From NCBI GenBank assembly GCA_004563715.1, contig ML214234.1, positions 2,888 through 54,799 on the forward strand: a DNA stretch of 51,912 nt, read 5' to 3'. Under the pieces are notes generated by a model. It did no database searches, was not told the DNA's origin, and saw only the letters and a program-made list of their open reading frames with translations. Origin of the DNA: Actinomycetota bacterium (GTDB taxonomy: Bacteria; Actinomycetota; Rubrobacteria; Rubrobacterales; Rubrobacteraceae). Of this stretch, positions 10,444 through 30,786 are shown piece by piece (the first letter of the stretch is position 1; each line of letters opens with the position of its first letter). Position numbers and translations under genes: made by a program.

Positions 10444-10449
10444 GTCCGC

Positions 10450-12918: not shown

Positions 12919-12924
12919 ACGAGA

Positions 12925-12930: not shown

Positions 12931-13053
12931 CCAGGATATGAACGCGTAATGCGATTCTATAAGCCCGTAGTATGGCGGGGCTCTTGTAGCGGAGCTTACT
13001 ATGCTCGTAGAAAGGCAAGCGCTATCCGAGGGTGCCGGAGAAAGGAGTGGAGC

Positions 13054-14238: not shown

Positions 14239-14249
14239 GAGGCCGAACA

Positions 14250-14360
14250 GTGGATGCCGCTCTCGTCTTCGTCCTCTACTACGGGCTCGTTCCGCTCGCG
14301 GTCACCGCTCTGGCGTACTTCGTGATCCGCCGTAGCTACCGGGTGGGTGAGGGGCGATGA
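14250..14360 (+). CDS. Small membrane protein coupled to the downstream symporter
   Basis: A 36-residue protein, one hydrophobic helix (about 5-26) followed by a basic tail (IRRSYRVGEGR). GTG at 14250 has AGGAGG seven bases upstream, and its stop overlaps the symporter start as ATGA. This arrangement matches small accessory subunits that accompany some sodium:solute symporters and NSS transporters. Its role in assembly or activity of the symporter is inferred from position only. It is short enough to be missed by automated annotation. Confidence 0.75.
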   Translation: MDAALVFVLYYGLVPLAVTALAYFVIRRSYRVGEGR

Positions 14361-15967: not shown

Positions 15968-16022
15968 CGGCGAAGAGGTGTTCCTGTGAGGTCGAACGCC
16001 GTGATGGACGCCCACCCTAGCC

Positions 16023-16050
16023 TTGCACGCTTGTTGAGGCCTGGTATATG
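16023..16050 (+). promoter_or_regulatory. Candidate promoter of alanine dehydrogenase
   Basis: TTGCAC (16023-16028) and TATATG (16045-16050) are separated by 16 bases, and the gene starts 36 bases further on. The 119-base gap suggests alanine dehydrogenase and agmatinase can be expressed separately from the symporter. Confidence 0.45.
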
Positions 16051-16086
16051 GTACCGGCAGGTTTATTCGGAGCGAGAGGAGTCTCC

Positions 16087-17217: not shown

Positions 17218-18192
17218 GTGCCCCGTTACCGGCCGGCCGACTCGTTCGAGACGCCGCGCTTCTCCGGCGTGCGCACCTTTATGCGCCTGCCCCACGTCCG
17301 CGACCTCGACAACGCCGACGCCGCCATCGTCGGAGCGCCGTTCGACACGGGCTCCTCTTTCCGGGTGGGGGCCCGCTTCGGCCCGGAGGCTATCCGCTCG
17401 GCCTCGCACCTGCTCCGGCCGTACAACCCATCCCAGGACGTCTCCCTCTTCGACCACCTCTCGGTCATAGACTACGGCGACGTATTCGTGGTGCCGGGGT
17501 TTATCGAGGAGAGCTACGAGAAGATCCAGGAAGGGCTGGAGACCATACACCGGGCCGGAGTGGTCCCCATAGTGCTGGGCGGGGACCACTCGATAGCCCT
17601 GCCGGAGTTGCGGGCGGCCGCGGCGGCCCGCGGGCCGCTCGCGCTCGCGCACTTCGACGCCCACGCCGACACCTGGGATGCCTATTTCGGCAAGAAGCAC
17701 AACCACGGCACGGTCTTCCGGCGGGCGGTGGAGGAGGGGCTTCTGAAGCCAGAGCGCTCCATCCAGGTGGGGATGCGCGGCCCGCTCTACGAGGCGGGGG
17801 ACCTGCGGGCGTCGCTGGAGCTCGGCTTCGAGCTCATCACCACCGACGAGGTCAGAGAAACAGGTGTAAAGGAGACGGTCGCCCGGGTCCGGGAGCGGGT
17901 GGGGGAGGAGAAGGTCTACGTCTCATTCGACGTGGACTTCGTGGATCCGGCCTTCGCGCCGGGCACCGGGACGCCGGAGGTCGGGGGCTTTACGAGCCGC
18001 GAGGCGCAGGAGTTCCTGAGAGGGCTCGCCGGCCTGGAGGTCGTGGGGGCCGACGTGGTGGAGGTGTACCCGGCCTACGACCCGGCGGGGGTTACGGCTG
18101 TTCTGGCGGCCAACGCCGCCTACGAAATCCTCACCCTGGTCGCGCTCTACCGGAAACGCAATCCGGCGTCCCGAGGCCTTTTCCGGTGGTGA
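17218..18192 (+). CDS. speB: Agmatinase / ureohydrolase family
   Basis: A 324-residue manganese ureohydrolase. Metal-binding motifs are GGDHSI (about 122), FDAHADTWD (about 146) and SFDVDFVDPAFAPGTGTPE (about 237), all intact. The family hydrolyses agmatine, or sometimes guanidinobutyrate or guanidinopropionate, to the amine or amino acid plus urea. GTG at 17218 follows the ald stop by nine bases. Its product putrescine would feed the oxidising operon at the left of the window, or its GABA product would feed gabT. The exact guanidino substrate is not certain. Confidence 0.88.
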   Translation: MPRYRPADSFETPRFSGVRTFMRLPHVRDLDNADAAIVGAPFDTGSSFRVGARFGPEAIRSASHLLRPYNPSQDVSLFDHLSVIDYGDVFVVPGFIEESYEKIQEGLETIHRAGVVPIVLGGDHSIALPELRAAAAARGPLALAHFDAHADTWDAYFGKKHNHGTVFRRAVEEGLLKPERSIQVGMRGPLYEAGDLRASLELGFELITTDEVRETGVKETVARVRERVGEEKVYVSFDVDFVDPAFAPGTGTPEVGGFTSREAQEFLRGLAGLEVVGADVVEVYPAYDPAGVTAVLAANAAYEILTLVALYRKRNPASRGLFRW

Positions 18193-18269
18193 AGCGCGTC
18201 ACTGACGGTTCCGGTGCGGCGGAGTCAACTCCCGTTACGCATGTTAGGGTTTTGGATGTAGGCAACGTG

Positions 18270-18292
18270 GTCCGCGATCCTTTCTCGCGGAC
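18270..18292 (+). promoter_or_regulatory. Hairpin in the leader of the next gene
   Basis: GTCCGCGA (18270-18277) and TCGCGGAC (18285-18292) form a perfect 8-bp stem with a 7-base loop. The hairpin ends immediately before the GAGAGGAGG ribosome site of the gene at 18311. It could be a terminator-like element after agmatinase or could affect translation; no T-tract follows. Confidence 0.4.
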
Positions 18293-18310
18293 GAGAGGAG
18301 GTTTTCGAGC

Positions 18311-18676
18311 ATGTCGCCCAAAGCCTCGCCGGGACGCCAGCAGCAGACCGACAGCGTCCTCATGAGTTGGGTCGGACACCGGGTGGTCGTCAAGTACCTC
18401 TCTGGCCCCGACGAGCCCGCAGACCCCGGGGACGAGAAGGGCCTCGTCCGCGGCGAGCCGGAAGCCCGCTCCGGGGTGTTCCAGTTGCGCCGCTTCGGAC
18501 AGATAGGCATAGAGGTCGCGAACACCCTGGAGGACTCCGCCAACGACCGGGTCACCCTCATACCGTGGAGCGCGATCCTCTCGCTCCGGGGCACTACACC
18601 CGCAGAGCGGGGAGGAGCCGACAGCCGGCTCTCCAGAGAGCAAGTGGCGGATCTGTCCCGCAACGACCCTACCTAG
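18311..18676 (+). CDS. Hypothetical protein
   Basis: A 121-residue soluble protein that I do not recognise. It has a polar N-terminus (SPGRQQQTDSV), then a core with alternating hydrophobic residues (GHRVVVKYL, GVFQLRRFGQIGIEV, RVTLIPWSAILSLRG) suggestive of a small beta-barrel. The core resembles Sm/LSm-like spacing, but I cannot claim homology. Its tail is polar. ATG at 18311 has a strong GAGAGGAGG site nine bases upstream, which supports it being real. No signal peptide, no cysteines. Confidence 0.65.
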   Translation: MSPKASPGRQQQTDSVLMSWVGHRVVVKYLSGPDEPADPGDEKGLVRGEPEARSGVFQLRRFGQIGIEVANTLEDSANDRVTLIPWSAILSLRGTTPAERGGADSRLSREQVADLSRNDPT

Positions 18677-18809
18677 ACCGGAACCAGAAAATCCAACGTT
18701 CTTCCGTTCTTCTCCCCGAACCGCTCCTGCCTGTTGCTTGAGCCTGAGGCCGCGGCTTCCGGCAGAATGTAGGGGGTTTCGTCCGTGCGGCTCGAAAGAG
18801 AGGTGTGGC

Positions 18810-19112
18810 GTGGAGAGCGGTGACAGGTTCGTCCGGGTGCTGGGGCAGCGGGACGTCATAGCCCTGGCTTTCGGGGCCACGATCGGGTTCGGCCGGGTCC
18901 CGCTGGTCGGAACCTGGTTGACGGAGGCCGGGCGTGGGCCGCTTATCGGGTTTATCGCCGTGGTCCTGAGCGCCGGGCTCGCCATCCAGTACCTGCCGGG
19001 CATGCCCTCCGGCCTCGGTGTGCCAGAGTGGGTCGTCATAGGGGTCTGGACGGCCGCCGGAGTGGTCTTCGCGCTCCGGATGGACGTGCCCGAGTACAAC
19101 CCCGAGCTGTAG
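18810..19112 (+). pseudogene. Internally deleted APC-family amino acid permease remnant
   Basis: The 100-residue frame begins like an APC permease N-terminus (VLGQRDVIALAFGATIGFG, first helix), then passes directly into what looks like the last two helices (PLIGFIAVVLSAGLAIQYL and PEWVVIGVWTAAGVVFAL). Intact APC permeases have about 450 residues and 12 helices, so roughly eight or more helices are missing in frame. GTG at 18810 has a weak GAGAGG site. It sits just before gabT and could be what is left of a GABA permease. A functional three-helix protein is possible but unlikely. Confidence 0.6.
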
Positions 19113-19117
19113 CCCGG

Positions 19118-19123
19118 TATACT
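19118..19123 (+). promoter_or_regulatory. Minus-10 box upstream of gabT
   Basis: TATACT lies 36 bases before the gabT start, just after the permease remnant. The minus-35 region (TACAAC with a 17-base spacer) is weak. It would let gabT be transcribed independently. Confidence 0.35.
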
Positions 19124-19159
19124 GGAAAGGATCAGACCGACGGGAAGGAGCTTGGCCGC

Positions 19160-20497
19160 ATGTTGGACTCCACGAGGATAAAGACCGAGATACCGGGGCC
19201 GAAGAGCCGGGCTCTGATGGACCGGCGTAAAAAGGCTGTCTCAGCCGGGATCAAGACCGGGACCCCGGTCTTTGTCCGGGAGGCCAGGGGCGCCACGATC
19301 ACCGACGTCGACGGCAACACGTTTATAGACTTCGGTGGCGGCATCGGCACTATGAACGTCGGGCACTCCGACCCGCGGGTGGTCGAAGCCATAAAAGAGC
19401 AGGCGGACCGCTTTACCCACACCTGCTTTTTCGTCAACCACTACGAGCCCTACGTCGAGCTGGCCGAGCGGCTGAACGCTATGGTCCCCGGCTCTTCGGA
19501 GAAGCGGACGGCGTTCTTCAACTCCGGGGCCGAGGCGGTGGAGAACGCGATCAAGGTCGCCCGATACCACACGGGCCGCAACGCGGTGCTGGCCTTCGAG
19601 AACGCCTTCCACGGCCGCACCCTGCTCACCATGACGCTCACCAGCGCGGTGGACCCGTATAAGAAAGGCTTCGGCCCGTTCGCCCCGGAGGTCTACCGGG
19701 TGCCGGCCCCGTATGCCTACCGCTGTCCGGCCAACCGGAACTGCTCCGGCGGCTGCCAGGGCGACTGCTTCGGGGCCATCGAGAAGGCCATGAGCGTAGG
19801 CTTCGACCGGGATTCCCTGGCGGCGGTGATCGTCGAGCCGGTGTTGGGCGAGGGCGGCTTTATCCCCGTGCCGGACTTCTACATGCGGCGGCTGCGGGAG
19901 CTGTGCGACGAGGTCGGGGCGCTCCTCATCGCCGACGAGGTACAGAGCGGCTACGGGCGGACGGGTACGTTGCTCGCCATCGAGCACTCCGGGGTCGAGC
20001 CGGACCTGGTGACCACGGCCAAGAGCATGGCCGCCGGGATGCCGCTCGGCGGCGTCACGGGCAAGGCGGAGATCATGGACGGAGTCCATCCGGGCGGCCT
20101 GGGCACCACCTACGGCGGCAACCCGCTGGCCTGTGCCGCCGCCCTCGCCGTCCTCGACGCCTTCGAGGAGGACGACCTGCTCTCCCGCGCCGAGGTCGTG
20201 GGCGGGCGGGTCATGGCCGCGATGCGCGAAATCCAGGATAAGCACCCGGACTTCGTCGGCGACGTGCGGGGCCGGGGCGCGATGGTGGCGATGGAGCTGG
20301 TACAGGACCCCGAGACCCGCGAGCCGGATGCCGGGCGGGCGACCCGGATTATCCAGAACGCCCTGCAGGAGGGGCTCATACTCCTGTCGGCCGGCCCGCT
20401 GGGCAACGTGATCCGGGTTCTGGTCCCCTTCGCGGTCACCGACGAGCAACTGGAGGAGGGGCTGGAGATACTGGCCCGCGCCGTGGACGCCGCCTAG
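19160..20497 (+). CDS. gabT: 4-aminobutyrate aminotransferase
   Basis: A 445-residue class III PLP aminotransferase. It has NSGAEAVENA (about 120), FHGRT (about 151), ADEVQSGYGRTG (about 263) and the PLP Lys in TTAKSMAAGMPLGG (about 292). A Cys-rich insert (RCPANRNCSGGCQGDC) lies near 195. It converts GABA and 2-oxoglutarate to succinate semialdehyde and glutamate. ATG at 19160 has GGAAGGAG nine bases upstream. It would take over the GABA produced by the polyamine operon. Other omega-amino acids may also be substrates. Confidence 0.9.
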   Translation: MLDSTRIKTEIPGPKSRALMDRRKKAVSAGIKTGTPVFVREARGATITDVDGNTFIDFGGGIGTMNVGHSDPRVVEAIKEQADRFTHTCFFVNHYEPYVELAERLNAMVPGSSEKRTAFFNSGAEAVENAIKVARYHTGRNAVLAFENAFHGRTLLTMTLTSAVDPYKKGFGPFAPEVYRVPAPYAYRCPANRNCSGGCQGDCFGAIEKAMSVGFDRDSLAAVIVEPVLGEGGFIPVPDFYMRRLRELCDEVGALLIADEVQSGYGRTGTLLAIEHSGVEPDLVTTAKSMAAGMPLGGVTGKAEIMDGVHPGGLGTTYGGNPLACAAALAVLDAFEEDDLLSRAEVVGGRVMAAMREIQDKHPDFVGDVRGRGAMVAMELVQDPETREPDAGRATRIIQNALQEGLILLSAGPLGNVIRVLVPFAVTDEQLEEGLEILARAVDAA

Positions 20498-21687: not shown

Positions 21688-23031
21688 TTACTTCTCGCCC
21701 AGGAGTTTTTCCAGGTAGCCCGTGTGGTAGCCGCCGGAGCGGAAGGCCTCGTCCTCCAGGAGCCGCAGGTGGAGTGGTATGGTGGTCTTGATGCCTTCCA
21801 GGCGGTACTCGCGCAGGGCGCGGCGGGCGCGGTTTATAGCCTCCTCGCGGGTCAGCGCCCAGACGATGAGCTTGCCCACCAGCGAGTCGTAGAACGGCGG
21901 TATTCCGTACCCCTGGTAGATGGCCGAGTCCACCCGGACGCCGGGGCCGCCGGGCACGTCGAGGAAGGTCACCTCTCCGGGCGAGGGCATGAAGTCCTGG
22001 TCGGGGTCTTCGGCGTTGATGCGGAACTCCATCGCCCAGCCCTCGAACGGCACGTCCTCCTGTTCCAGGCTCAGGGGCTCGCCGGCGGAGGCCCGGATCT
22101 GCTCTTTCACCAGGTCCACGCCCGTGAGCATCTCCGTCACCGGGTGTTCGACCTGGATGCGGGTGTTCATCTCGATAAAGTAGAAGTTCTGTTCCTCGTC
22201 CACCAGGAACTCTACCGTCCCCGCGTTGGTGTACCCGGCCTCCCGTCCCAGCCGGACGGCGGCCTCGCACATCGCCTCCCGGGTCTCGGGGCTTATGCCG
22301 GGCGACGGGGCTTCCTCCAGGACCTTCTGGCGGCGGCGCTGCATGGAGCACTCCCGCTCGTAGAGGTGTATGAAGTTGCCGTGGTGGTCGCCGAGCACCT
22401 GCACCTCCACGTGGCGCGGGCCGACCAGCAGCTTCTCCAGGTACAGGGAGCCGTCGCCGAAGGCTTTCTGCGCCTCCTGCTTCGCCACCTGCACGGCCTG
22501 GCGCAGCTCCTCTTTGTTCTCTGCTACCCGGATGCCCCGTCCGCCGCCCCCGGCCGCCGCCTTGACCATGACCGGGTAGCCGATCTTATCCGCCGTTTTC
22601 ACCGCTTCGTCCGCCGAAGCCGTCTGCTCGGAGCCGGGGACGACCGGCACGGCGGCCTCCTTCGCCAGCCTCCGCGCCGCCGACTTGTCGCCCATCTTCT
22701 CTATGGCCCCTGACGACGGCCCGATAAACGTAATCTCCGCGTCCTCGCAGGCCGCCGCGAAGGCGGCGTTCTCGGCCAGAAAGCCGTAGCCGGGGTGGAT
22801 GGCGTCCGCCCCGGTCTCCCGCGCGGCCTCGATTATGGCCTCGATGTTCAGGTAACTCTTGCCGGCCGGAGGCGGGCCGATGTTGACGGCTTCGTCGGCG
22901 TGGCGCACGTGGAGGGCCTCGGCGTCGGCGTCCGAGTAGACGGCGACGGACGGTATGTTCAACTCCTGGCAGGCCCGGATGACGCGCAAGGCGATCTCGC
23001 TCCGGTTGGCCACAAGAACCTTGTCGAACAC
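21688..23031 (-). CDS. accC: Biotin carboxylase subunit
   Basis: A 447-residue biotin carboxylase. N-terminus FDKVLVANRSEIALRVIRACQ, ATP-grasp glycine loop KAAAGGGGRGIR (about 158), bicarbonate/biotin block EMNTRIQVEHPVTEM (about 285). It carboxylates the biotin on a carrier protein using ATP and bicarbonate. I choose GTG at 23031, five bases after GGGAGG; the longer frame upstream is not family-like. The window has no acetyl-CoA carboxyltransferase (AccA/AccD). The nearest carrier and transferase-like genes are the divergent PxpB/PxpC-like pair and the carrier at 26552, so its acceptor may not be acetyl-CoA. BioY lies upstream. Confidence 0.93.
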   Translation of the reverse strand: MFDKVLVANRSEIALRVIRACQELNIPSVAVYSDADAEALHVRHADEAVNIGPPPAGKSYLNIEAIIEAARETGADAIHPGYGFLAENAAFAAACEDAEITFIGPSSGAIEKMGDKSAARRLAKEAAVPVVPGSEQTASADEAVKTADKIGYPVMVKAAAGGGGRGIRVAENKEELRQAVQVAKQEAQKAFGDGSLYLEKLLVGPRHVEVQVLGDHHGNFIHLYERECSMQRRRQKVLEEAPSPGISPETREAMCEAAVRLGREAGYTNAGTVEFLVDEEQNFYFIEMNTRIQVEHPVTEMLTGVDLVKEQIRASAGEPLSLEQEDVPFEGWAMEFRINAEDPDQDFMPSPGEVTFLDVPGGPGVRVDSAIYQGYGIPPFYDSLVGKLIVWALTREEAINRARRALREYRLEGIKTTIPLHLRLLEDEAFRSGGYHTGYLEKLLGEK

Positions 23032-23117
23032 CGCAACCTCCCGTCTGTCAGCCTGCGTCCCAGCGCCGCAATGATACCTACCCCGTGCGTCCCGCGCCCG
23101 TAACGGGCCGTGGGGGC

Positions 23118-23663
23118 TCAGGTGCGCGAGGCCGCAGCTATGGCGGGGGCGGCGGCGACGGCCACGAGCGCGGCGAGGCCGATCTTGATCAGGTCGAAGG
23201 CGACGAACGGCAGCACGCCCTGGACAAAGGCCACCGCCAGGGGCAGCTGGGCGACGAACATGAGCCAGGTCATGCCGAGGGCGTAGATTACGGCGAGGGC
23301 CGCGGTGCCCGCCAGGGAGCTTACCCACAGCGCCCGGCGGCGGACGGCGCCCGCGGCGGCCGGGGCGGCGAGGCCCGCGACGGCGGCGGCTATCGGGTAG
23401 GAGACGAGGTAACCCCCGGTGGGGCCGAGGAGAATCCCGAGCCCGCCCCGGAAACCGGCGAAGACCGGCACCCCCACCGCCCCGACCAGCAGGTAGACCG
23501 CCATCGCGAGCGCCCCGTAGCGGGGCCCGAGGATAAAACCGGCGAGGACGACCGCGAAGACCTGGAAGGTAAACGGTACGGGGAAGAGCGGGATGGTGAT
23601 CTGGGCCGCCACGGCTGTTATGGCCGCCACCAGCGCCACCCGGGTCATCATGGCTACGTTCAA
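23118..23663 (-). CDS. bioY: Biotin transporter BioY (S component)
   Basis: A 181-residue membrane protein with about six helices. It contains the BioY signatures TIPLFPVPFTFQVFAVVLAG (15-34) and GGLGILLGPTGGYLVSYP (72-89). BioY is the biotin-binding unit of an ECF-type transporter; the energising AT-module genes are not in the window, and it may act alone or share them. TTG at 23663 has AAGGGG six bases upstream; ATG at 23651 is the alternative. The position next to biotin carboxylase, divergent from the biotin-carrier cluster, links biotin supply to biotin use. Confidence 0.92.
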   Translation of the reverse strand: MNVAMMTRVALVAAITAVAAQITIPLFPVPFTFQVFAVVLAGFILGPRYGALAMAVYLLVGAVGVPVFAGFRGGLGILLGPTGGYLVSYPIAAAVAGLAAPAAAGAVRRRALWVSSLAGTAALAVIYALGMTWLMFVAQLPLAVAFVQGVLPFVAFDLIKIGLAALVAVAAAPAIAAASRT

Positions 23664-23716
23664 GTCACACCCCTTTACGCCTGGCTTGCTGCTACTCGCG
23701 TCTCTTTTAGCATCTA

Positions 23717-23745
23717 TTGACCGGTATTTCCCGCGCTAGTAGTAT
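23717..23745 (+). promoter_or_regulatory. Promoter of the PxpB-like gene cluster
   Basis: TTGACC (23717-23722) and TAGTAT (23740-23745) are separated by 17 bases, a good housekeeping promoter. The expected start near 23752 gives a leader of about 48 bases before the ATG at 23800. Confidence 0.6.
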
Positions 23746-23780
23746 TCCAGCGTCGTAGAAGGTTTCTAGCGCAGGGAAAT
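23726..23780. repeat. Long imperfect inverted repeat spanning the promoter (candidate operator)
   Basis: ATTTCCCGCGCTAG (23726-23739) is repeated in reverse complement as CTAGCGCAGGGAAAT (23766-23780), differing by one inserted base. The arms bracket the minus-10 box and expected transcription start. The left arm would not be in the transcript, so a DNA operator for a dimeric or looping repressor is more likely than an RNA hairpin. It also lies between the divergent bioY and PxpB-like genes and could control both. Confidence 0.55.
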
Positions 23781-23799
23781 AGGGAGCGAGGGTGAGACC

Positions 23800-24708
23800 A
23801 TGGGCGGCGTAGAGACCGAACTGCCTCAGGCACGCTACAGCTACGGCGGGGACGAGTTCGTCTTCGTCGAGCTATCCGAGGCGATGAGCCTGAAGGTCAA
23901 CTTCCGGGCGATGGCGATCACGAACAAGCTCAAGGAAGAGGCTATCGAGGGCATCATGGACATCTGCCCGTCGAACGCCTCGTACATGGTCCGCATAGAC
24001 CCGGACGTGCTGCACCCGGACGACCTGATCTCGCGCCTCAAAGAGCTGGACGAGGAGGTCGGCGACATCGAGGGCTTTACGCTGGAGTCGCGGGTCGTGG
24101 ACGTGCCGGTCATGATCGAGGACCCCTGGACCCACGAGACCCTGATGCGCTTCCGCGACCGCCACCAGGACCCGGACGCCACGGACCTGGAGTACGCCGC
24201 CCGCATCAACGGCTACGACACCAAGGAAGATTTCATAGACGCCCTTCTGGGCTCGCCGTGGCTGGTGACCATGATCGGCTTCGTGCCTGGCCTCCCCTGG
24301 TGCTACCAGCTCGTCCCGCCCGAGGAGCAGATAGAGGTCCCCAAGTACGTGCGGCCCCGCACCTACACCCCCGAGCGGGCCTTCGGCTTTGGCGGCGGGT
24401 TCGCGGTGGTCTACTCGGTAGAGGGCGCCGGCGGCTACCAGCTCTTCGGCGTGGCCCCCGCCCCGGTCTTGGACGTGAAGCAGGAGCTAAAGGACTTCCA
24501 GGACTCCATCGTCTTCCCCCGACCCGGCGACGTCTTCAACTACCGCCGCGTGGACCGGGAGGAGTTCGACGAGGTCCGGGCGCGGGTCGAGGACAAGACC
24601 TTCGAGTACCGCAAAAAAGAGTTCACCTTCCACCCGGACCGCTCGCTGGAAGACCCGCACGCGTACAACAAGGAGATCCTGGAGGTGCTCTATGGCGATC
24701 AGGGTTAA
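23800..24708 (+). CDS. Carboxyltransferase subunit (AHS1 / CT_C_D), PxpB or urea-carboxylase type
   Basis: A 302-residue AHS1-domain protein (KipI/PxpB family). It is longer than PxpB (about 220-240). From memory it looks closer to the C-terminal carboxyltransferase of urea carboxylase: an EDPWTHETL block near 107, ARINGYDTKEDF near 129, then PRTYTPERAFGFGGG (about 186) and EGAGGYQLFGVAP (about 208). Its tail (EEFDEVRARVEDKTFEYRKKE) also has a counterpart there. ATG at 23800, GAGGGTG upstream. It overlaps the AHS2 gene, so the two form one complex. Either half of an ATP-dependent 5-oxoprolinase or a split biotin-dependent carboxyltransferase. Confidence 0.8.
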   Translation: MGGVETELPQARYSYGGDEFVFVELSEAMSLKVNFRAMAITNKLKEEAIEGIMDICPSNASYMVRIDPDVLHPDDLISRLKELDEEVGDIEGFTLESRVVDVPVMIEDPWTHETLMRFRDRHQDPDATDLEYAARINGYDTKEDFIDALLGSPWLVTMIGFVPGLPWCYQLVPPEEQIEVPKYVRPRTYTPERAFGFGGGFAVVYSVEGAGGYQLFGVAPAPVLDVKQELKDFQDSIVFPRPGDVFNYRRVDREEFDEVRARVEDKTFEYRKKEFTFHPDRSLEDPHAYNKEILEVLYGDQG

Positions 24709-25666
24709 GCAGCCGGGGCTGCTCACCACCGTCCAGGACACGGGCCGGTTCGGGGAGTACGCCATCGGGATGCCGCCGAGCGGGGCGATGGACGTGTTCT
24801 CCTACCAGGTCGGCAACTACCTGGTGGGCAACGAGGAGGGCGCGGCGGGGTTGGAGATCACCTACTTCGGCCCGGAACTGGAGTTTACCGAGAGCGCCGT
24901 CATCGCCGTCACCGGGGCGGAGCTGCCGCCGAAGATAAACGGCGAGGAAGCCCCGACCTGGGAGACGCTGGCCGTGCAGGAGGGCGACGTGCTCTCCTTC
25001 GACTACCTCAAGAGCGGCGCCCGGTCGTACCTCGCTGTCGCGGGCGGCATAGACGTGCCCGTCTTCATGCACAGCCGCTCGACGTACACCCTCATAGGGC
25101 TCGGCGGCCACGAGGGCCGCGCCCTGCAGGAAGGCGACGAGTTGAAGGTCGGCGAGAGCGGGGACCGCTCGGACCGGGTCGGAAAAAGGGTGGACGACGA
25201 CCACGTCCCGGCGTACAGCGACGCGCCGGAGCTGCGCGTGATCATCGGCCTCGCCTCCTACCGGCTTACGGAGGAGAGCATGCAGACGTTCCTGAACACC
25301 GAGTGGACGGTTACTCCCGACGCGGACCGCATCGGCTACCGCTACCGGGGCGGCGAGCTGGAGTTCGTCGAGCGGGAGCAGCCCGCGGGCGCGGGCGCGG
25401 ACCAGGCCAACGTCGTGGACTTCGGCTACCCGATAGGCTCCATCCAGGTGCCCGGCGGCGTCGAGCCCATCGTGCTCAACAACGACGCCGTGACTGGCGG
25501 CGGCTACGCCACCATCGGTACCGTCATCAGCGTGGACCGCGACACCCTCGCCCAGACCAAGACCAACGACAAGACCCGGTTCCGCTCCGTGGGCCTCGAC
25601 GAGGCGCTGGAGGCCCGCAAGAAGCGGCGGCGGCAGATGGCGGAGATCAAGGAAGCGCTTGCTTAG
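24692..25666 (+). CDS. Carboxyltransferase subunit (AHS2 / CT_A_B), PxpC or urea-carboxylase type
   Basis: A 324-residue AHS2-domain protein (KipA/PxpC family). N-terminus KQPGLLTTVQDTGR, then MPPSGAMD (about 27), EGAAGLEIT, SRSTYTLIGLGGHEGR (about 130), and PGGVEPIVLNNDAVTGGGY (about 257). The PPSGAMD form and the SRSTYTL-GGHEGR block remind me more of urea carboxylase than of ordinary PxpC. It starts inside the end of the AHS1 gene with GGAGG seven bases upstream, so the two are translationally coupled. With AHS1 it should form the transferase or lactamase catalytic unit. Substrate not known. Confidence 0.8.
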   Translation: MAIRVKQPGLLTTVQDTGRFGEYAIGMPPSGAMDVFSYQVGNYLVGNEEGAAGLEITYFGPELEFTESAVIAVTGAELPPKINGEEAPTWETLAVQEGDVLSFDYLKSGARSYLAVAGGIDVPVFMHSRSTYTLIGLGGHEGRALQEGDELKVGESGDRSDRVGKRVDDDHVPAYSDAPELRVIIGLASYRLTEESMQTFLNTEWTVTPDADRIGYRYRGGELEFVEREQPAGAGADQANVVDFGYPIGSIQVPGGVEPIVLNNDAVTGGGYATIGTVISVDRDTLAQTKTNDKTRFRSVGLDEALEARKKRRRQMAEIKEALA

Positions 25667-25671
25667 AGGTC

Positions 25672-25737
25672 TGTCAGTCGATCAGACCGTCAGTCAGGAA
25701 AAGCCGAAAGACTGAAAGACTGAGAGACTGACATACT
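25672..25737 (+). repeat. 8-bp tandem repeats and hairpin between the AHS2 and pxpA genes
   Basis: GAAAGACT (25706-25713) is repeated as GAAAGACT, GAGAGACT and GACATACT through 25737, an array with a period of eight. TGTCAGTC (25672-25679) is the exact reverse complement of GACTGACA (25726-25733), so the 100-base gap can fold into a hairpin. No T-tract follows. It may modulate the ratio of PxpBC-like to downstream products. Confidence 0.5.
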
Positions 25738-25766
25738 AGAAAGACGCCGACCGGAGGGAGGCACAC

Positions 25767-26537
25767 ATGCACATAGACCTCAACTGCGACATGGGCGAGA
25801 GCTTCGGTCCGTACACGATGGGCCACGACGCGGAGATGATGCGCTACATCTCCTCGGCCAACGTGGCGGGCGGCTTTCACGCCGGGGACCCGCACGTGAT
25901 GCGCGAGACCGTGCGGCTGGCGAAGGAGCACGGGGTCGCGGTCGGGGTCCACTCCGGGTACCGGGACCTGGTCGGGTTCGGGCGGCGCGAGATACAGATG
26001 CCGCCCGAGGAGATCCACGACGAGCTGATCTACCAGCTCGGGGCGCTGCGGGAGTTCGCCCGGTACTACGGCATGGAGGTCCAGCACGTAAAGCCCCACG
26101 GCGCCCTGTACATGGCCGCCGCCCGCGACGAGGAGCTGTCGCGCGCGATCATCGAGGCGATCCAGAGGGTGGACCCCGGCCTGCTCCTGTTCTGCATGGA
26201 GGCGTCCGTTACCTACGAGTTGGCGAAAAGGATGGACCAGCCGGTCGTGGGCGAGTTCTTCGCCGACCGGGGCTACAACGACGACGGCCAGATCGTCTTT
26301 ACCCGCGCCGTCACCGAGGAGCTGGAGCCCGAGGAGGTGGGCGACCGGGTGGTGCGGGCCGTCAAGGAGGGCAAGGTCGTCGCCGACAGCGGCAACGAGA
26401 TAGACGTGGTCTGCGACTCGGTGTGCGTCCACGGCGACACGCCGGGGGCTGTGAGGCTCGCGGAGGCCATAGCCCGCAAGCTGCGGGAGAACGACATCGA
26501 GATCCGCCCGCTCGGGCGCGCCAGTCAAACAGTCTAG
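25767..26537 (+). CDS. pxpA: 5-oxoprolinase subunit A (LamB/YcsF family)
   Basis: A 256-residue LamB/YcsF protein. The opening DLNCDMGESFG is diagnostic, followed by SANVAGGFHAGDP (about 30), HSGYRD, VKPHGALY (about 110), EFFADRGYNDDG (about 165) and VCVHGDTPGA near the end. With PxpB and PxpC, PxpA forms an ATP-dependent enzyme opening 5-oxoproline to glutamate. ATG at 25767 has GGAGGGAGG upstream. Here it is embedded with a biotin carrier, so lactam hydrolysis in this cluster may differ from the classical enzyme. Confidence 0.9.
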   Translation: MHIDLNCDMGESFGPYTMGHDAEMMRYISSANVAGGFHAGDPHVMRETVRLAKEHGVAVGVHSGYRDLVGFGRREIQMPPEEIHDELIYQLGALREFARYYGMEVQHVKPHGALYMAAARDEELSRAIIEAIQRVDPGLLLFCMEASVTYELAKRMDQPVVGEFFADRGYNDDGQIVFTRAVTEELEPEEVGDRVVRAVKEGKVVADSGNEIDVVCDSVCVHGDTPGAVRLAEAIARKLRENDIEIRPLGRASQTV

Positions 26538-26551
26538 AGAAGGAGCACGCG

Positions 26552-26791
26552 TTGGCCGAAAAGACCGTCAAAGCCCCGATGCCCGGCACTTTCTACCGCC
26601 GGCCCGACCCGGAGAGCGGCCCCTACGTCGAGGAGGGCGGCAGCGTCTCGGCGGGCGATACCATCGGGCTCGTCGAGGTGATGAAGTCGTTCCACGAGAT
26701 CAAGGCCGAGGAAGACGGCACGGTCTCGAAGTTCCTGGTCGGGGACGAGGAGGCCGTCAGCGCGGGGCAGGACCTCGTGGAGCTGGAGTAA
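26552..26791 (+). CDS. Small biotin carboxyl carrier protein (BCCP-like)
   Basis: A 79-residue biotinyl/lipoyl domain, without the N-terminal extension of AccB. The biotinylated Lys is in GLVEVMKSFHEI (Lys about 46), with valine in place of the usual EAMKM. The other half, AEEDGTVSKFLVGDEEAVSAGQDLVEL, is complete, and the opening VKAPMPGTF is standard. TTG at 26552 has AGGAG six bases upstream and follows pxpA by 14 bases. It would shuttle carboxyl groups from the biotin carboxylase to a transferase, most likely the AHS1/AHS2 pair. Confidence 0.88.
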   Translation: MAEKTVKAPMPGTFYRRPDPESGPYVEEGGSVSAGDTIGLVEVMKSFHEIKAEEDGTVSKFLVGDEEAVSAGQDLVELE

Positions 26792-26844
26792 CGGGCTTTG
26801 GGCTGACCCGACCCCAAAACAAACGGCTACGATAGGAGCTGGCC

Positions 26845-28359
26845 TTGCCTTCCGAACCTTTCCGCCTGGAAGAAGCGACGATCGACGACATCCACTCCGC
26901 TTTCCGGTCGGGGGAGTTGACCTGCCGCCGGCTGGTCGAGCTGTACCTGGCCCGCATCGAGTCCTACGATAAGAACGGGCCGAGCCTCAACTCGATCATC
27001 ACGGTAAACCCGAACGTGCTGGAGGAAGCGGAGGCGCTCGACCGCTCGTTCCAGCAGACCGGGGAGCTGTCCGGCCCGCTGCACGGCGTGCCGGTGCTGG
27101 TCAAGGACCAGGCGGAGACCGCCGGCATCCGCACGACGTTCGGCTCTACCGCCTTCGAGGACTACACGCCGGAGAAAGACGCGACCGCGGTGAGGAGGCT
27201 CAAGGACGCGGGGGCGCTGATCCTGGCGAAGACCAACCTGCCGGACTTCGCCACCTCCTGGTTCGCCTACTCCTCCGCGGGTGGCGAGACGAAGAACCCG
27301 TACGCTCTGGACCGTGACCCCGGAGGTTCCAGCAGCGGCACGGGGGCGGCGGTAGCGGCGAACCTCGGGGCGGTGGGGATAGGCGAGGACACCGGAGGGT
27401 CCATCCGGGTCCCCTCGTCCTTCGACAACCTCGTCGGCGTCCGGGTAACCACCGGCCTCGTAAGCCGCGCCGGCCTGTCGCCGCTCGTGGTCTTCCAGGA
27501 CACCGCCGGGCCCATGACCCGGACCGTGAAGGACGCCGCGATGCTCCTGGACGCGCTCGTGGGCTACGACCCCGAGGACCCGTTTACGGCGGCTGCCGCG
27601 CTCGCCCACGACGCCGGCAGCTATGCGCAGGGCCTGGCCGAAGGCGGCTTGAGCGGCAAGAGGATAGGCGTCTTGCGGGAGGCTTTCGGGCCGGAAGACG
27701 ACCCTGACTGCGGACAGGTCAACGAGGTGGTCGAGGGCGCGCTCGGGGCCTTGCGGGAGGCGGGGGCGGAGGTAGTGGACCCGGTCGTCGTCCCCGACCT
27801 GCTGCACTACATCGGTGTCACCTCCCTGTACCTCTCGCAGTCCCGCTACGACATAGACAAGTTCCTCTCGCAGAGGCCGGGGGCCCACACGGTGGGGGAA
27901 CTCTACGACGCCAAACGCTTCCACCCGCGCCTTGACCTGTTTATAGCGATAGCGGAAGAGGCGCCGGAAGATCCCGAAGAAGACCCCAACTACTACAGGG
28001 GTCTCGCCGCGCGGGAGGAGTTCCGCCGGGCCATCCTAGGTACGATGGCCGCGCACGACCTCGACGCGATCGTCTACCCGAACTCGCAGGTGCTGCCGCC
28101 GACGAGGCAGGAGCTCGACGACTGGAAGTGGACCGTGCTCACCTTCCCGACCAACGCGCTCATAGCGGCCCAGGCCGACCTGCCGTCTATCTCGCTGCCC
28201 GCCGGTTTCGCTGAAGGCGGCGTTCCCGTGGGGTTCGAGCTCGTCGGCAAACCCTACGGCGAGGCCGACCTGCTGAGGCTGGCCCACGCCTACGAGACGC
28301 GGGCAACCCCGCGCAGACCTCCGGAGAGCGCGCCGCCGCTCCCCGACGAACCTCAGTAG
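26845..28359 (+). CDS. Amidase signature family enzyme
   Basis: A 504-residue amidase. The Ser-Ser-Lys triad is intact: Lys87 (VLVKDQAETAG), cis-Ser near 163 in GGSSSGTGAAVAA, nucleophile Ser186 (GEDTGGSIRVPS). It hydrolyses an amide to acid and ammonia; the family includes allophanate hydrolase, GatA and many broad amidases. It lacks the extra C-terminal domain of allophanate hydrolase, so that identity is only a possibility. TTG at 26845 has AGGAG six bases upstream. It lies 53 bases after the biotin carrier, in the same run. Confidence 0.9.
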   Translation: MPSEPFRLEEATIDDIHSAFRSGELTCRRLVELYLARIESYDKNGPSLNSIITVNPNVLEEAEALDRSFQQTGELSGPLHGVPVLVKDQAETAGIRTTFGSTAFEDYTPEKDATAVRRLKDAGALILAKTNLPDFATSWFAYSSAGGETKNPYALDRDPGGSSSGTGAAVAANLGAVGIGEDTGGSIRVPSSFDNLVGVRVTTGLVSRAGLSPLVVFQDTAGPMTRTVKDAAMLLDALVGYDPEDPFTAAAALAHDAGSYAQGLAEGGLSGKRIGVLREAFGPEDDPDCGQVNEVVEGALGALREAGAEVVDPVVVPDLLHYIGVTSLYLSQSRYDIDKFLSQRPGAHTVGELYDAKRFHPRLDLFIAIAEEAPEDPEEDPNYYRGLAAREEFRRAILGTMAAHDLDAIVYPNSQVLPPTRQELDDWKWTVLTFPTNALIAAQADLPSISLPAGFAEGGVPVGFELVGKPYGEADLLRLAHAYETRATPRRPPESAPPLPDEPQ

Positions 28360-28413: not shown

Positions 28414-30786
28414 ATGACCGAGACAGCCGGACGTTACACGGGAACGAGCGTACCGCGCAAGGAGGACCCGGACCTGATCACGGGCCGGGGTAACTTCACC
28501 GACGACATCAAGCTGCCGGGGATGCTGCACATGGCCGTGCTGCGCAGCCCCTTCGCCCACGCGAAGATAACGAACATAGACGTCTCGGGTGCCCTGGAAC
28601 AGCCAGGCGTGGTGGCGGCCTTTACCGGCGACGACCTGGCCGGGGAGTGGGTCGTCGGCATCCCCTGCGGATGGCCGGTGACCGAGGACATCAAGATGCC
28701 CGACCACTACCCCCTGGCCCGCGGCGAGGTGAACCACATGGGCGAGGCGGTTGCCGTGGTGCTGGCCGACGGGCGCTACACGGCCCAGGACGCCCTGGAG
28801 CACATCGAGGTGGACTACGAGCCGCTGGAGGCGGTCGTGGACGTGGAGGCCGCCCTGGAGGACGGCTCGCCGCTCGTGCACGAAGAGTTCGGCACCAACG
28901 AGTGCTACGTCTGGCCGCTGGAAGTGGGCGACGTGGACGGCGCCTTCGAGCAGGCGGACGTGGTGGTCAGCGAGCGCTACATCCAGCAGCGCCTGATCCC
29001 GAGCGCCATCGAGCCGCGGGCCACGGTGGTGACGCGGGAGCCGGGCCAAGGCGGCTCTTTTACCGTCTACACTTCGACCCAGGTTCCCCACTTCACCCGG
29101 GAGATCCTCTCCGCGGTCTGTGGCGTACCCCAGCACAAGCTCCGGGTCGTGGCGCCGGACGTGGGCGGGGGCTTCGGCTCCAAACTGAACGTCTACGCCG
29201 AGGAGGCGCTGGCGTTGGCGCTCTGCCGCCGGCTCGGGTCGCCGGTCAAGTGGGTCGAGGACCGCTCGGAGAACCACCTGGCGACGATCCACGGCCGCGG
29301 CCAGGTCCAGTACATAGAGCTCGCCGCCACCAGCGAAGGCGAGATCCTGGGCATGAAGGTGAAGCTCCTGGCGGACATGGGTGCCTACCTGCAGCTCCTC
29401 ACCCCCGGCATCGCCATCTTCGGCTCGTTCACCTACCCCGGTCTCTACGCCTTCGACGCCTACTCCTTCGAGTGCACCGGGGTGTTCACGAACCTCACCC
29501 CGACCGACGCCTACCGCGGGGCCGGGCGCTCCGAAGCAGCCTACGCCCACGAGCGGATCATGGACGCCCTCGCCCGCGAGCTGGACATGGACCCGGCGGA
29601 GCTGCGCCTGAAGAACCTGATGCCGCCCTTCGACGAGCCGACCACCAACCCCGCCGGCGTCCAGTACGACTCCGGCGACTACGAGACCTGCATGCGCAAG
29701 GCCCTGGATCTCGTGGACTACGCGGGCGTGCGCGACGAGCAGCGCCGCCGCCGGGAGGCGGGGGACGTAAAGCAGCTCGGCGTGGGCATCGGCAACTTCA
29801 CCGAGAGCGGCGGCCTCTCGCCCTCGAAGGTCGCGGCGGCCGTGCGCCTCCAGAGCGGCGGGTGGGAGGCGGCCAACGTTCGGTTTACCTCCGCCGGCAC
29901 CGTGGAGGTCGTGACCGGCACCTCACCCCACGGCCAGGGCCACGTAACGAGCTGGTCCCAGATCACCGCCGACGCCCTGGGCGTCTCGCCGGACGACGTG
30001 GAGGTGCTGCACGGCGACACCGCCGTAGCCCCGATGGGCCGGGACACCTACGGCTCCCGGAGCCTCGCCGTGGGCGGGGTCGCGGTACACCTCGCGTGCG
30101 ACAAGGTGATCGAGAAGGGCAAGAAGATAGCGGCCCACCTCCTCGAAGCCTCCGAGGACGACCTGGAGTTCGAGGCCGGCAAGTTCAGCGTCGCCGGCTC
30201 GCCCGACCAGAGCCTGACCATCCAGGAGGTGGCGGGTAAGGCGCTGCTCGCGGACGACCTGCCGGAAGGGATGGAGCCGGGCCTCAACGAGAACTCCGTC
30301 TTCGACCCGCCCAACTTTACCTGGCCCTTCGGGACCCACATCTGCGTGGTCGAGGTGGACACCGAGACCGGCAAGACGGAGATCGTCAACTACGTAGCAG
30401 TGGACGACTGCGGCCCCGTGGTGAACCCCCAGATCCTGAACGGCCAGCTCCACGGCGGCATCGCCCAGGGCATCGCCCAGGCCCTCTACGAAGAGGCCGT
30501 CTACGACGAGGACGGCACCCTCATCACCGGCTCGATGGTGGACTACATGATCCCCGGCGCGCCCGAGATCCCCGCCATGACCCTCGACCAGACCGTTACC
30601 CTTTCCCCGACGAACCCCCTGGGCGTAAAAGGCATCGGGGAGTCCGGGGCTATCGGCTCCTCCCCGGCGGTCGTCAACGCGGTGATAGACGCCCTGGAGT
30701 CTCTAGGAGTCAAGCACATAGACATGCCGGCCTCCCCGATGAGGGTGTGGCGGGCTATCCAGGATGCCCGCGAAGCCCCGGTTTAG
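28414..30786 (+). CDS. Molybdenum hydroxylase large subunit (xanthine dehydrogenase/CoxL-like, form II)
   Basis: A 790-residue molybdopterin-cytosine-dinucleotide-binding subunit. N-terminal block RKEDPDLITGRGNFTDDI, VGGGFGSK near 252, active-site loop AYRGAGR near 366, and the catalytic Glu in GIGESGAIGSSP near 740. AYRGAGR marks form II; true aerobic CO dehydrogenase has AYRCSFR. The family hydroxylates purines, aldehydes or N-heterocycles. No 2Fe-2S or FAD subunit gene adjoins it, so partners must lie elsewhere. ATG at 28414 has AAAGGAG seven or eight bases upstream. It could hydroxylate a ring precursor feeding the amidase/lactam genes; that is inference. Confidence 0.9.
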   Translation: MTETAGRYTGTSVPRKEDPDLITGRGNFTDDIKLPGMLHMAVLRSPFAHAKITNIDVSGALEQPGVVAAFTGDDLAGEWVVGIPCGWPVTEDIKMPDHYPLARGEVNHMGEAVAVVLADGRYTAQDALEHIEVDYEPLEAVVDVEAALEDGSPLVHEEFGTNECYVWPLEVGDVDGAFEQADVVVSERYIQQRLIPSAIEPRATVVTREPGQGGSFTVYTSTQVPHFTREILSAVCGVPQHKLRVVAPDVGGGFGSKLNVYAEEALALALCRRLGSPVKWVEDRSENHLATIHGRGQVQYIELAATSEGEILGMKVKLLADMGAYLQLLTPGIAIFGSFTYPGLYAFDAYSFECTGVFTNLTPTDAYRGAGRSEAAYAHERIMDALARELDMDPAELRLKNLMPPFDEPTTNPAGVQYDSGDYETCMRKALDLVDYAGVRDEQRRRREAGDVKQLGVGIGNFTESGGLSPSKVAAAVRLQSGGWEAANVRFTSAGTVEVVTGTSPHGQGHVTSWSQITADALGVSPDDVEVLHGDTAVAPMGRDTYGSRSLAVGGVAVHLACDKVIEKGKKIAAHLLEASEDDLEFEAGKFSVAGSPDQSLTIQEVAGKALLADDLPEGMEPGLNENSVFDPPNFTWPFGTHICVVEVDTETGKTEIVNYVAVDDCGPVVNPQILNGQLHGGIAQGIAQALYEEAVYDEDGTLITGSMVDYMIPGAPEIPAMTLDQTVTLSPTNPLGVKGIGESGAIGSSPAVVNAVIDALESLGVKHIDMPASPMRVWRAIQDAREAPV

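What the first reader, a model, noticed from the sequence alone, without database searches (positions are those of the whole stretch)
21688..28359. Split biotin-dependent carboxylase/lactamase module
Seen: biotin carboxylase, BioY, AHS1 and AHS2 subunits, PxpA, a 79-residue biotin carrier and an amidase lie in two divergent units around one promoter region. No AccA/AccD is present. Known: urea carboxylase is a single chain containing biotin carboxylase, AHS2+AHS1 carboxyltransferase and carrier, and its partner allophanate hydrolase is an amidase-signature enzyme. PxpABC is a 5-oxoprolinase. Here AHS1 is long (302 residues) and, from memory, both AHS subunits look more like urea carboxylase than ordinary PxpB/PxpC. 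Inference: a multi-subunit carboxylase that carboxylates an amide, lactam or urea before hydrolysis. Agmatinase nearby would supply urea; GABA-derived pyrrolidone or 5-oxoproline are other substrates.
Basis: partly seen in the sequence, partly recalled or inferred. Interest (0 to 1): 0.7.

Follow-up and report, generated by a model that had tools for sequence, protein, structure and literature searches.

The report
Split biotin-dependent lactam-opening enzyme
Five neighbouring genes appear to build an unrecognised enzyme that uses ATP, bicarbonate and the vitamin biotin to open a stable ring amide such as 2-pyrrolidinone into GABA; the same gene set occurs in other bacteria and in salt-loving archaea under misleading fatty-acid and 5-oxoprolinase names.

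Summary
The genes are as described. AccC, a biotin carrier, AHS1, AHS2 and PxpA form a five-gene module in Rubrobacteraceae, haloarchaea and Proteobacteria: all five lie together in 22 of 25 loci read outside Rubrobacteraceae. AHS1 and AHS2 each form one clade apart from urea carboxylase and from PxpB/PxpC. Nesting inside the Pxp rows is rejected for AHS1, not for AHS2. All 35 carriers examined keep the biotinyl-lysine, in a V-M-K rather than A-M-K setting. AHS2 keeps urea-carboxylase-type residues, but where urea carboxylase has Asn and guanidine carboxylase Asp it has Gln, as PxpC does. The partner is the lactam-type PxpA/LamB, not allophanate hydrolase, and GABA-transaminase-type genes sit by several copies. 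Best reading: biotin carries CO2 to a lactam, PxpA opens the ring, giving an omega-amino acid; 2-pyrrolidinone to GABA is likeliest. This would be a split counterpart of Aspergillus LamA/LamB (that LamA is the urea-carboxylase-like protein is recalled). Shown: sequence, synteny, clades. Inferred: reaction, complex, substrate. The amidase is not core; urea is unlikely.

The parts
21688..23037 (-). AccC-type biotin carboxylase subunit (start inferred)
   Evidence: motifs intact, e.g. GGGGRGI, HVEVQ, ERECS, EMNTRIQVEHPVTE (that these are the catalytic motifs is recalled). One of four biotin carboxylases of the genome; the other three have a carrier domain beside them or in the same frame.
23118..23663 (-). 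BioY, biotin-uptake substrate-binding component, between AccC and AHS1
   Evidence: Pfam BioY 139.8 bits; in the same place in 9 of 17 other Rubrobacteraceae genomes read
23717..23745 (+). promoter-like site TTGACC-N17-TAGTAT upstream of AHS1
   Evidence: similar block in 10 of 15 Rubrobacteraceae rows, window included; consensus match only
23800..24708 (+). AHS1 carboxyltransferase subunit (CT_C_D), 302 aa, urea-carboxylase-like
   Evidence: TIGR02712 urea carboxylase 117 bits against TIGR00370 PxpB 59.6 (cut-off 145.55 not met); tree, tests
24692..25666 (+). AHS2 carboxyltransferase subunit (CT_A_B); Gln252 at the specificity position
   Evidence: TIGR00724 263.6 bits over cut-off 230.2; PxpC equivalog cut-off not met; tree, tests; residues
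25767..26537 (+). PxpA/LamB/YcsF-family ring-opening subunit
   Evidence: Pfam LamB_YcsF 318 bits; module PxpAs one side of a branch, support 91 (quick tree)
26552..26791 (+). biotin carboxyl carrier protein, 79 aa, biotinyl-Lys45 in EVMKSF
   Evidence: NF005457 116.6 bits, cut-off 87; VMK in all 35 module carriers examined elsewhere
26845..28359 (+). amidase-signature hydrolase, accessory and not core
   Evidence: Pfam Amidase; allophanate hydrolase TIGR02713 169 bits, cut-off 511 not met; among loci read, close relatives only by the G163 (76%) and Halomarina (58%) modules, remote ones (30-32%) in R. indicoceani and Haladaptatus QDMS2
19163..20497 (+). GabT, 4-aminobutyrate transaminase (start inferred)
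   Evidence: TIGR00700 561.5 bits, cut-off 506.65; recurs near the module
28414..30786 (+). molybdenum-hydroxylase large subunit, recurrent neighbour in Rubrobacteraceae
17218..18192 (+). agmatinase-family enzyme, possible source of putrescine and so of GABA
   Evidence: TIGR01230 222 bits, cut-off 174.3

Best explanation
The module is a split, biotin-dependent lactam carboxylase/hydrolase. AccC uses ATP and bicarbonate to carboxylate biotin on Lys45 of the small carrier. AHS1 and AHS2 together form the carboxyltransferase, which moves the carboxyl group to the amide of a small lactam. PxpA then opens the activated ring; the N-carboxy group leaves as CO2 and frees an omega-amino acid. Net reaction: lactam + ATP + 2 H2O -> omega-amino acid + ADP + Pi, with bicarbonate recycled. 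The likeliest substrate is 2-pyrrolidinone (gamma-butyrolactam), giving GABA for the neighbouring GabT. BioY supplies biotin. Shown: composition, conservation, separate clades, intact biotin and carboxylase motifs, the residue at the specificity site. Inferred: complex formation, order of steps, substrate.
For: (1) Conserved set: PxpA, BCCP, AccC, AHS1 and AHS2 together in 22 of 25 non-Rubrobacteraceae loci read; exceptions Natribaculum, Natrononativus, Halomonas. (2) Biotin chemistry: biotin-carboxylase motifs intact; VMK lysine in 35 of 35 carriers examined (30, where 4 of 34 module loci had no carrier in the stretch; 5); BioY beside AccC in many Rubrobacteraceae, BioB after the module in Acidiphilium; the genome's other three biotin carboxylases have their own carrier domains. 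(3) Carboxyltransferase: AHS1 and AHS2 each one clade (100/99*); AHS1 kept out of either half of the Pxp rows (p 0.0037, 0.0065); AHS1 scores 117 bits to urea carboxylase and 59.6 to PxpB, likewise in Ruegeria and Natribaculum; AHS1 domain median 292 aa, urea carboxylase 297, PxpB 215; Asn240, Asp243 and Tyr246 of AHS2 shared with urea carboxylase, not PxpC. (4) Lactam: AHS2 Gln252 aligns with KlUA Asn1330; Gln in 34 of 34 module rows plus 5 of 5 extra, 14 of 14 and 9 of 9 PxpC-type rows; urea-carboxylase rows Asn 3, Asp 3, Ile 1, Ala 1 of 8; a review says Asn in urea and Asp in guanidine carboxylase (PMC12186494, passages). (5) GABA context: GabT near the module in 8 of 18 Rubrobacteraceae genomes including the window; GABA-T and SSADH in Ruegeria and Aestuarium, SSADH and an aminotransferase in Halomonas, class-III aminotransferase in Halomarina, Halostagnicola and Haladaptatus QDMS2 (6 of 25). 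(6) Precedent: A. nidulans lamA/lamB serve lactam catabolism with omega-amino-acid genes (PMC8016842, passages); lamB relates to ycsF and 2-pyrrolidinone use (PMC3412718, passages); a bicarbonate-dependent lactamase of another family exists (PMC8453981, section 14 read).
Against: No activity or complex is shown. For AHS2, nesting in either half of the PxpC-type rows is not rejected (p 0.087, 0.29), and without a root the trees do not say whether the module is nearer urea carboxylase or Pxp. GABA-type genes are absent from most non-Rubrobacteraceae loci (19 of 25), where HyuA/HyuB, allantoin/cytosine-type permeases or ABC transporters often sit instead; class-III aminotransferases are common and no background rate was computed. 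Rubrobacteraceae copies share ancestry. The haloarchaeal transaminases do not reach the GABA-T cut-off, and the Haladaptatus one scores higher against diaminobutyrate transaminase models. PxpABC opens 5-oxoproline without biotin (recalled), so PxpA alone does not fix the chemistry. The fungal LamA sequence could not be compared. Structure models failed. Module AccCs are not one clade: haloarchaeal ones lie elsewhere, so AccC may be exchanged or shared.
Confidence: 0.6

Rival explanations
1. A biotin-dependent 5-oxoprolinase: same chemistry, but the substrate is 5-oxoproline and the product glutamate.
For: PxpA partner; Gln at the specificity position shared with PxpC; AHS2 not firmly separable from PxpC; the genome has a single AHS2 gene and so no separate PxpC.
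Against: No pyroglutamyl peptidase in the genome; two hydantoinase-B-type genes could serve 5-oxoproline (function untested); neighbours include GABA-transaminase-type genes in several lineages.
Confidence: 0.2
2. A split urea or guanidine carboxylase: agmatinase makes urea, the module carboxylates it, the amidase splits allophanate.
For: AHS1 scores best against urea carboxylase; shared AHS2 loop residues; agmatinase nearby; no urease in the genome.
Against: Gln at the Asn/Asp specificity site in 39 of 39 module rows; the amidase fails the allophanate hydrolase cut-off and is missing from most loci read; PxpA is conserved instead, whereas no PxpA was found by the 8 urea-carboxylase loci, 4 of which have AtzF.
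Confidence: 0.07
3. The subunits act on another cyclic amide (hydantoin- or dihydropyrimidine-like, N-substituted or larger lactam), with different substrates in different hosts.
For: HyuA/HyuB or allantoin/cytosine-permease-type neighbours in Roseateles, Shinella, Methylobacterium, Phyllobacterium and Halomonas; a molybdenum hydroxylase near the module in Rubrobacteraceae and Diaphorobacter could make lactams from other N-heterocycles.
Against: GABA-type neighbours in Rubrobacteraceae, two Rhodobacterales, one Halomonas and three haloarchaeal loci point to a simple omega-amino acid product.
Confidence: 0.25
4. AHS1/AHS2/PxpA work without biotin like PxpABC, and AccC/BCCP/BioY only serve acetyl-CoA carboxylase.
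For: AccC and BCCP score as acetyl-CoA carboxylase parts; AccC stands in a separate divergent unit in the window; AHS2 not firmly separable from PxpC.
Against: The genome's other three biotin carboxylases already have carrier domains; BCCP and AccC lie inside the same close run of genes as PxpA, AHS1 and AHS2 in Proteobacteria; distinctive carrier motif.
Confidence: 0.08

Closest known systems
Aspergillus nidulans LamA/LamB (2-pyrrolidinone utilisation)
   Same: LamB is of the PxpA/YcsF family; lamA/lamB serve lactam catabolism alongside omega-amino-acid genes (PMC8016842, PMC3412718, passages). Strope et al. (PMC3073912, passages) use A. nidulans P38095 (1241 aa) as fungal urea carboxylase, list the four sub-domains of that protein type, and find urease but no allophanate amidase in A. 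nidulans; that P38095 is LamA is recalled.
   Different: LamA would be one polypeptide; here four separate subunits in bacteria and archaea. Sequence kinship to LamA could not be tested.
Urea carboxylase / guanidine carboxylase
   Same: Biotin carboxylase, AHS2+AHS1 carboxyltransferase and biotin carrier; AHS1 length and best model score; conserved AHS2 loop residues.
   Different: Split into four genes; Gln instead of Asn/Asp at the specificity site; separate clade; PxpA instead of allophanate hydrolase.
PxpABC 5-oxoprolinase (KipI/KipA, YbgJKL)
   Same: PxpA plus AHS1- and AHS2-family proteins as separate genes; Gln at the specificity site.
   Different: PxpB/PxpC cut-offs not met, separate clade (for AHS2 not firmly so), AHS1 domain about 77 residues longer in the median; biotin carboxylase and carrier beside it in 22 of 25 loci outside Rubrobacteraceae.
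ATP- and bicarbonate-dependent lactamases CapAB/OplAB
   Same: Open lactams with ATP; bicarbonate needed by CapAB; carboxylation of the lactim is one of three proposed mechanisms (PMC8453981, section 14 read; PMC11033972, passages).
   Different: Reported not similar to PxpABC (PMC8453981, passage); no biotin; OplAB barely acts on gamma-butyrolactam.

Membership tests
PxpABC 5-oxoprolinase | AHS1 meets PxpB model TIGR00370 | tested here: not met
   59.6 bits, cut-off 145.55; 76.2 and 73.7 in Ruegeria and Natribaculum
PxpABC 5-oxoprolinase | AHS2 meets PxpC equivalog NF045499 | tested here: not met
   209.4 bits, cut-off 500; caution: the sampled PxpC-like rows were not run against it
PxpABC 5-oxoprolinase | AHS1 nests among PxpB | tested here: not met
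   PxpB-type rows one side of a branch 100/99*; nesting rejected, p 0.0037 and 0.0065
PxpABC 5-oxoprolinase | AHS2 nests among PxpC | tested here: inconclusive
   best tree keeps it out (95/92*), AU p 0.087 and 0.29
PxpABC 5-oxoprolinase | PxpA (LamB/YcsF) subunit | tested here: met
   Pfam 318 bits; NF003814 332 bits, cut-off 226
PxpABC 5-oxoprolinase | ATP-dependent activity on 5-oxoproline | not testable with these tools
   needs assay
Urea carboxylase | BC, AHS2, AHS1 and BCCP in one chain (TIGR02712) | tested here: not met
   four separate ORFs; best piece 536.9 bits, cut-off 1303.85
Urea carboxylase | Asn (urea) or Asp (guanidine) at the specificity position | tested here: not met
   Gln252 opposite KlUA Asn1330; rule from PMC12186494; that it is residue 1330 is recalled
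Urea carboxylase | allophanate hydrolase partner | tested here: not met
   amidase 169 bits, TIGR02713 cut-off 511; not conserved
Biotin-dependent carboxylases (broad) | intact biotin carboxylase | tested here: met
   TIGR00514 over cut-off; motifs
Biotin-dependent carboxylases (broad) | carrier with biotinylatable Met-Lys | tested here: met
   EVMKSF; 35 of 35 other module carriers examined
Biotin-dependent carboxylases (broad) | carboxyltransferase with an identified acceptor | not testable with these tools
   AHS1/AHS2 of the CT_C_D and CT_A_B families; acceptor unknown
LamA/LamB lactam utilisation | same domain set (BC, AHS2, AHS1, BCCP) plus LamB | tested here: met
   domain set here; that LamA has this set rests on PMC3073912 plus recall of P38095
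LamA/LamB lactam utilisation | sequence kinship with fungal LamA | not testable with these tools
   no fungal collection available
Acetyl-CoA carboxylase | AccA/AccD carboxyltransferase partner | tested here: inconclusive
   none named among the ORFs scanned; genome not searched for AccA/AccD

The most novel reading that the evidence does not exclude
A widespread five-subunit biotin-dependent gamma-lactamase, in bacteria and archaea, that hydrolyses 2-pyrrolidinone by temporary carboxylation. It would give a strong enzymatic route for the nylon-4 monomer and explain the urea-carboxylase-like fungal LamA. A second biotin-linked, PxpB-type lineage would suggest that the PxpABC family arose from, or repeatedly recruits, carboxyltransferase chemistry.
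Probability: 0.4. Interest if true: 0.78.

Novelty: new variant of a known kind. Interest (0 to 1): 0.6.

Why it matters
Five- and six-membered lactams are very stable, and PMC11033972 (passages) states that, to its authors' knowledge, no enzymatic approach for mild cleavage of gamma-butyrolactam had been identified; OplAB gave only traces. If right, a whole clade now annotated as acetyl-CoA carboxylase and 5-oxoprolinase pieces is a distinct biotin enzyme for that job, found on chromosomes and plasmids of bacteria and on haloarchaeal plasmids. It would also put a mechanism behind the classical lamA/lamB genetics of Aspergillus, and suggest how one carboxyltransferase fold serves urea, guanidine and lactams with changes at one pocket residue.

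Tried and rejected
Rejected or disfavoured: urea or guanidine carboxylase plus allophanate hydrolase (specificity residue, amidase not conserved); AccC/BCCP as plain acetyl-CoA carboxylase (the other biotin carboxylases have their own carriers; close gene linkage in Proteobacteria); ordinary PxpABC (model cut-offs; AHS1 tests; only weakly for AHS2).

A test I withdraw: the AU tests of M+P and M+BP (p 1.2e-7, 6.7e-7, 6e-55) reject strongly, but P and BP are my own labels (BP = Pxp-type locus with AccC) and neither is a clade, so those p-values largely reflect that. I repeated the question with the two real halves of the Pxp rows: rejected for AHS1, not for AHS2. With three groups and no root, 'nearest to urea carboxylase' is not a tree result either; it rests on model scores, length and shared residues.

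Led nowhere: AlphaFold2 of AHS1 and AHS2 with only 11 and 12 close rows gave mean pLDDT 47 and 39, so no fold search was run. The single genome-contig scan found only Rubrobacteraceae or unnamed actinobacterial MAG contigs of that kind, so wider sampling rests on plasmid records and one actinobacterial phylum search; chromosomal copies in other phyla are not counted. The intergenic alignment shows no clear motif besides the promoter-like block. Rows dropped from the trees: six Rubrobacteraceae rows (L044, L046, L050, L054, L076, L081); R. marinus, L078, L080 and L082 were never in the row sets. Loci were chosen by hand from hit lists, not at random.

Literature: searches (open-licence library only; listings seen) showed no paper on this module; Niehaus 2017 and Katz and Hynes 1989 are not held, so prior mention there cannot be excluded.

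Full report
What is there. The window lies in a Rubrobacteraceae genome (its group f1 holds contigs that match R. indicoceani, R. taiwanensis and R. marinus records in length and content). The reported genes are confirmed. Leftward: AccC and BioY. Rightward: AHS1, AHS2 (overlapping by 17 bases), PxpA, a 79-residue biotin carrier, an amidase and a molybdenum-hydroxylase large subunit. One promoter-like site lies between them. Upstream are GabT and agmatinase, and further out polyamine-transport-like genes, another class-III aminotransferase, a PucR-type regulator and alanine dehydrogenase, which looks like a polyamine/GABA island.

The genome. It has four biotin carboxylases. The other three have a carrier domain beside them (C22) or in the same open frame (C35, C51), so the window's AccC and carrier look like an extra pair. 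It has a single AHS2 gene, the one in the window, no urease, no pyroglutamyl peptidase and two hydantoinase-B genes.

Conservation. A phylum search found AHS1 relatives in 57 of 296 genomes; 14 of 27 in the window's family (window included, E at or below 1.3e-125), the other 43 distant. In Rubrobacteraceae the order AccC (divergent), AHS1, AHS2, PxpA is kept where contigs allow, except that no AccC was seen near the R. taiwanensis copy, whose contig was read 7.9 kb upstream. A protein search of plasmids shows a gap in the 60 of 742 rows listed: AHS2s at about 50-74% identity, then about 36% for PxpC and urea carboxylase (best rows). The first band includes haloarchaea (Haladaptatus, Natrialba, Natronorubrum, Halomarina, Natrinema), Rhizobiales, Rhodobacterales, Azospirillum, Acidiphilium and Burkholderiales. 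Of 25 non-Rubrobacteraceae loci read by annotation or my own ORF search, 22 hold all five genes. Natribaculum lacks PxpA and AccC nearby, Natrononativus lacks the carrier nearby, and in Halomonas only AHS2 remains beside a transposase gene.

Phylogeny. I compared module rows (M) with urea carboxylase (UC) and PxpB/PxpC-type loci, 14 without (P) and 9 with AccC and carrier (BP); labels are mine. AHS2, 60 rows: M one clade 100/99*, UC one clade 100/100*, Pxp rows together on the other side of a 95/92* branch. AHS1, 59 rows: M and UC each 100/99*, Pxp rows one side 100/99*. Rows of P and BP intermix, so my tests of M+P and M+BP, though strongly rejected, say little. Tests of nesting M in either real half of the Pxp rows: rejected for AHS1 (p 0.0037, 0.0065), not rejected for AHS2 (p 0.087, 0.29). 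The trees have no root, so they do not say which group is nearest. Model scores favour urea carboxylase for AHS1 (117 against 59.6 bits) and only slightly for AHS2 (238 against 209), and AHS1 has the length of the urea-carboxylase domain. Module PxpAs are one side of a branch with support 91 (quick tree). Module AccCs are not one clade: haloarchaeal ones lie apart, as if a local biotin carboxylase had been recruited.

Residues. Biotin carboxylase motifs are intact. Module carriers read V-M-K in 35 of 35 examined, against A-M-K in all 12 UC and BP carriers. In AHS2, Asn240, Asp243 and Tyr246 are shared with UC but not PxpC; Pro28 is shared with UC and 3 of 14 PxpC; Gln252, Pro254 and Tyr272 are shared with PxpC but not UC. 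Gln252 aligns with Asn1330 of Kluyveromyces urea amidolyase. A review states that Asn marks urea and Asp guanidine carboxylases (PMC12186494); that this is residue 1330 is recalled, but the column holds 3 Asn, 3 Asp, 1 Ile and 1 Ala in the 8 UC rows and Gln in 39 of 39 module rows. So the pocket is not of the urea or guanidine type and resembles PxpC, a lactam enzyme.

Context. GabT-like genes (200 bits or more, within 10 kb) occur with the module in 8 of 18 Rubrobacteraceae genomes including the window; several contigs are cut, and these genomes share ancestry. Outside the family, 6 of 25 loci carry GABA-type genes: Ruegeria and Aestuarium (GABA transaminase and succinate-semialdehyde dehydrogenase), Halomonas (that dehydrogenase and an aminotransferase), Halomarina, Halostagnicola and Haladaptatus QDMS2 (class-III transaminases below the GABA-T cut-off). 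At the same thresholds GabT was found by 0 of 14 P, 0 of 9 BP and 0 of 8 UC loci, and SSADH by 1 UC locus; those stretches were often shorter, and no background rate was computed. Biotin supply genes recur: BioY in 10 of 18 Rubrobacteraceae genomes including the window, BioB in Acidiphilium. The amidase has close relatives only by the G163 and Halomarina modules.

Mechanism. AccC carboxylates biotin on the carrier, AHS1/AHS2 transfer the carboxyl to a lactam amide, PxpA opens the ring, CO2 leaves. This is urea carboxylase chemistry with a lactam-type pocket and a lactam-opening partner. Bicarbonate-dependent lactam opening has a precedent in CapAB, for which a carboxylated lactim is one of three proposed routes (PMC8453981). 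Aspergillus lamA/lamB are lactam-catabolism genes (PMC8016842), lamB relates to ycsF (PMC3412718), and the A. nidulans 'urea carboxylase' P38095 occurs without allophanate amidase and beside urease (PMC3073912). I recall P38095 as LamA. The module then looks like LamA cut into four genes plus LamB. A bolder step (inference only): the recurrent molybdenum hydroxylase (within 10 kb in 13 of 18 Rubrobacteraceae genomes including the window) might oxidise 1-pyrroline, from agmatine and putrescine, to 2-pyrrolidinone.

Verdict. A real, conserved and misannotated gene set. I put about 0.8 on one biotin-dependent enzyme distinct from PxpABC and urea carboxylase (0.85 before one search showed that AHS2 is not firmly separable from PxpC), about 0.7 on a lactam substrate and about 0.5 on 2-pyrrolidinone. 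Structure prediction failed. Novelty: new variant of a known kind.

Noticed in passing
L061-L063, L073, L075, L106, L119-L121: PxpB-type clusters (Lactiplantibacillus, actinobacterial family f20, Agrobacterium, G008) that also carry AccC and a carrier motif, several with a DUF1445 'putative hydro-lyase'. Biotin linkage in the PxpABC family is therefore broader than the window's clade: 9 of 23 Pxp-type loci read, not a random sample, 6 of them from one family.
   Followed up: partly
window 28414-30786; L047, L048, L050, L051, L053, L055, L065, L076, L081: A molybdenum-hydroxylase large subunit lies within 10 kb of the module in 13 of 18 Rubrobacteraceae genomes (window included), with no small or FAD subunit named among the ORFs scanned beside it in the window; it may make the lactam.
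   Followed up: partly
window 2407-17208: PotD- and PotA-like polyamine transport genes, a class-III aminotransferase, a PucR-type regulator (PmfR-like hit below cut-off), a sodium symporter and alanine dehydrogenase: a polyamine/GABA catabolic island upstream of the module.
   Followed up: no
window 18193-19150: Poorly conserved stretch between agmatinase and GabT; ORF 18738-19112 reads like a fragment of an amino-acid permease (my reading, no family search). Of six relatives compared, only L082 aligns over a longer part, L077 over 44 bases.
   Followed up: no
L056, L087 (Rubrobacter marinus): AccC, AHS1, AHS2 and XdhA are each split over more than one frame, either sequencing errors or decay of the module.
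   Followed up: no
L066, L068, L093, L104 (haloarchaeal plasmids): Module genes are partly scattered over several kilobases or missing nearby, and haloarchaeal AccC does not group with the other module AccCs, which suggests subunit replacement after transfer.
   Followed up: partly
L067 (Roseateles sp. XES5, NZ_CP084754.1): The record is marked UNVERIFIED_ORG and its module rows sit with Shinella, so it is probably a mislabelled Rhizobiaceae and no independent betaproteobacterial case.
   Followed up: no
Corynebacterium glutamicum cg1141/cg1142 (PMC3398298): pxpA and the neighbouring transporter gene changed about two-fold with biotin supply in a published table, although no biotin subunit is mentioned for that cluster in the passages seen; unexplained.
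   Followed up: no
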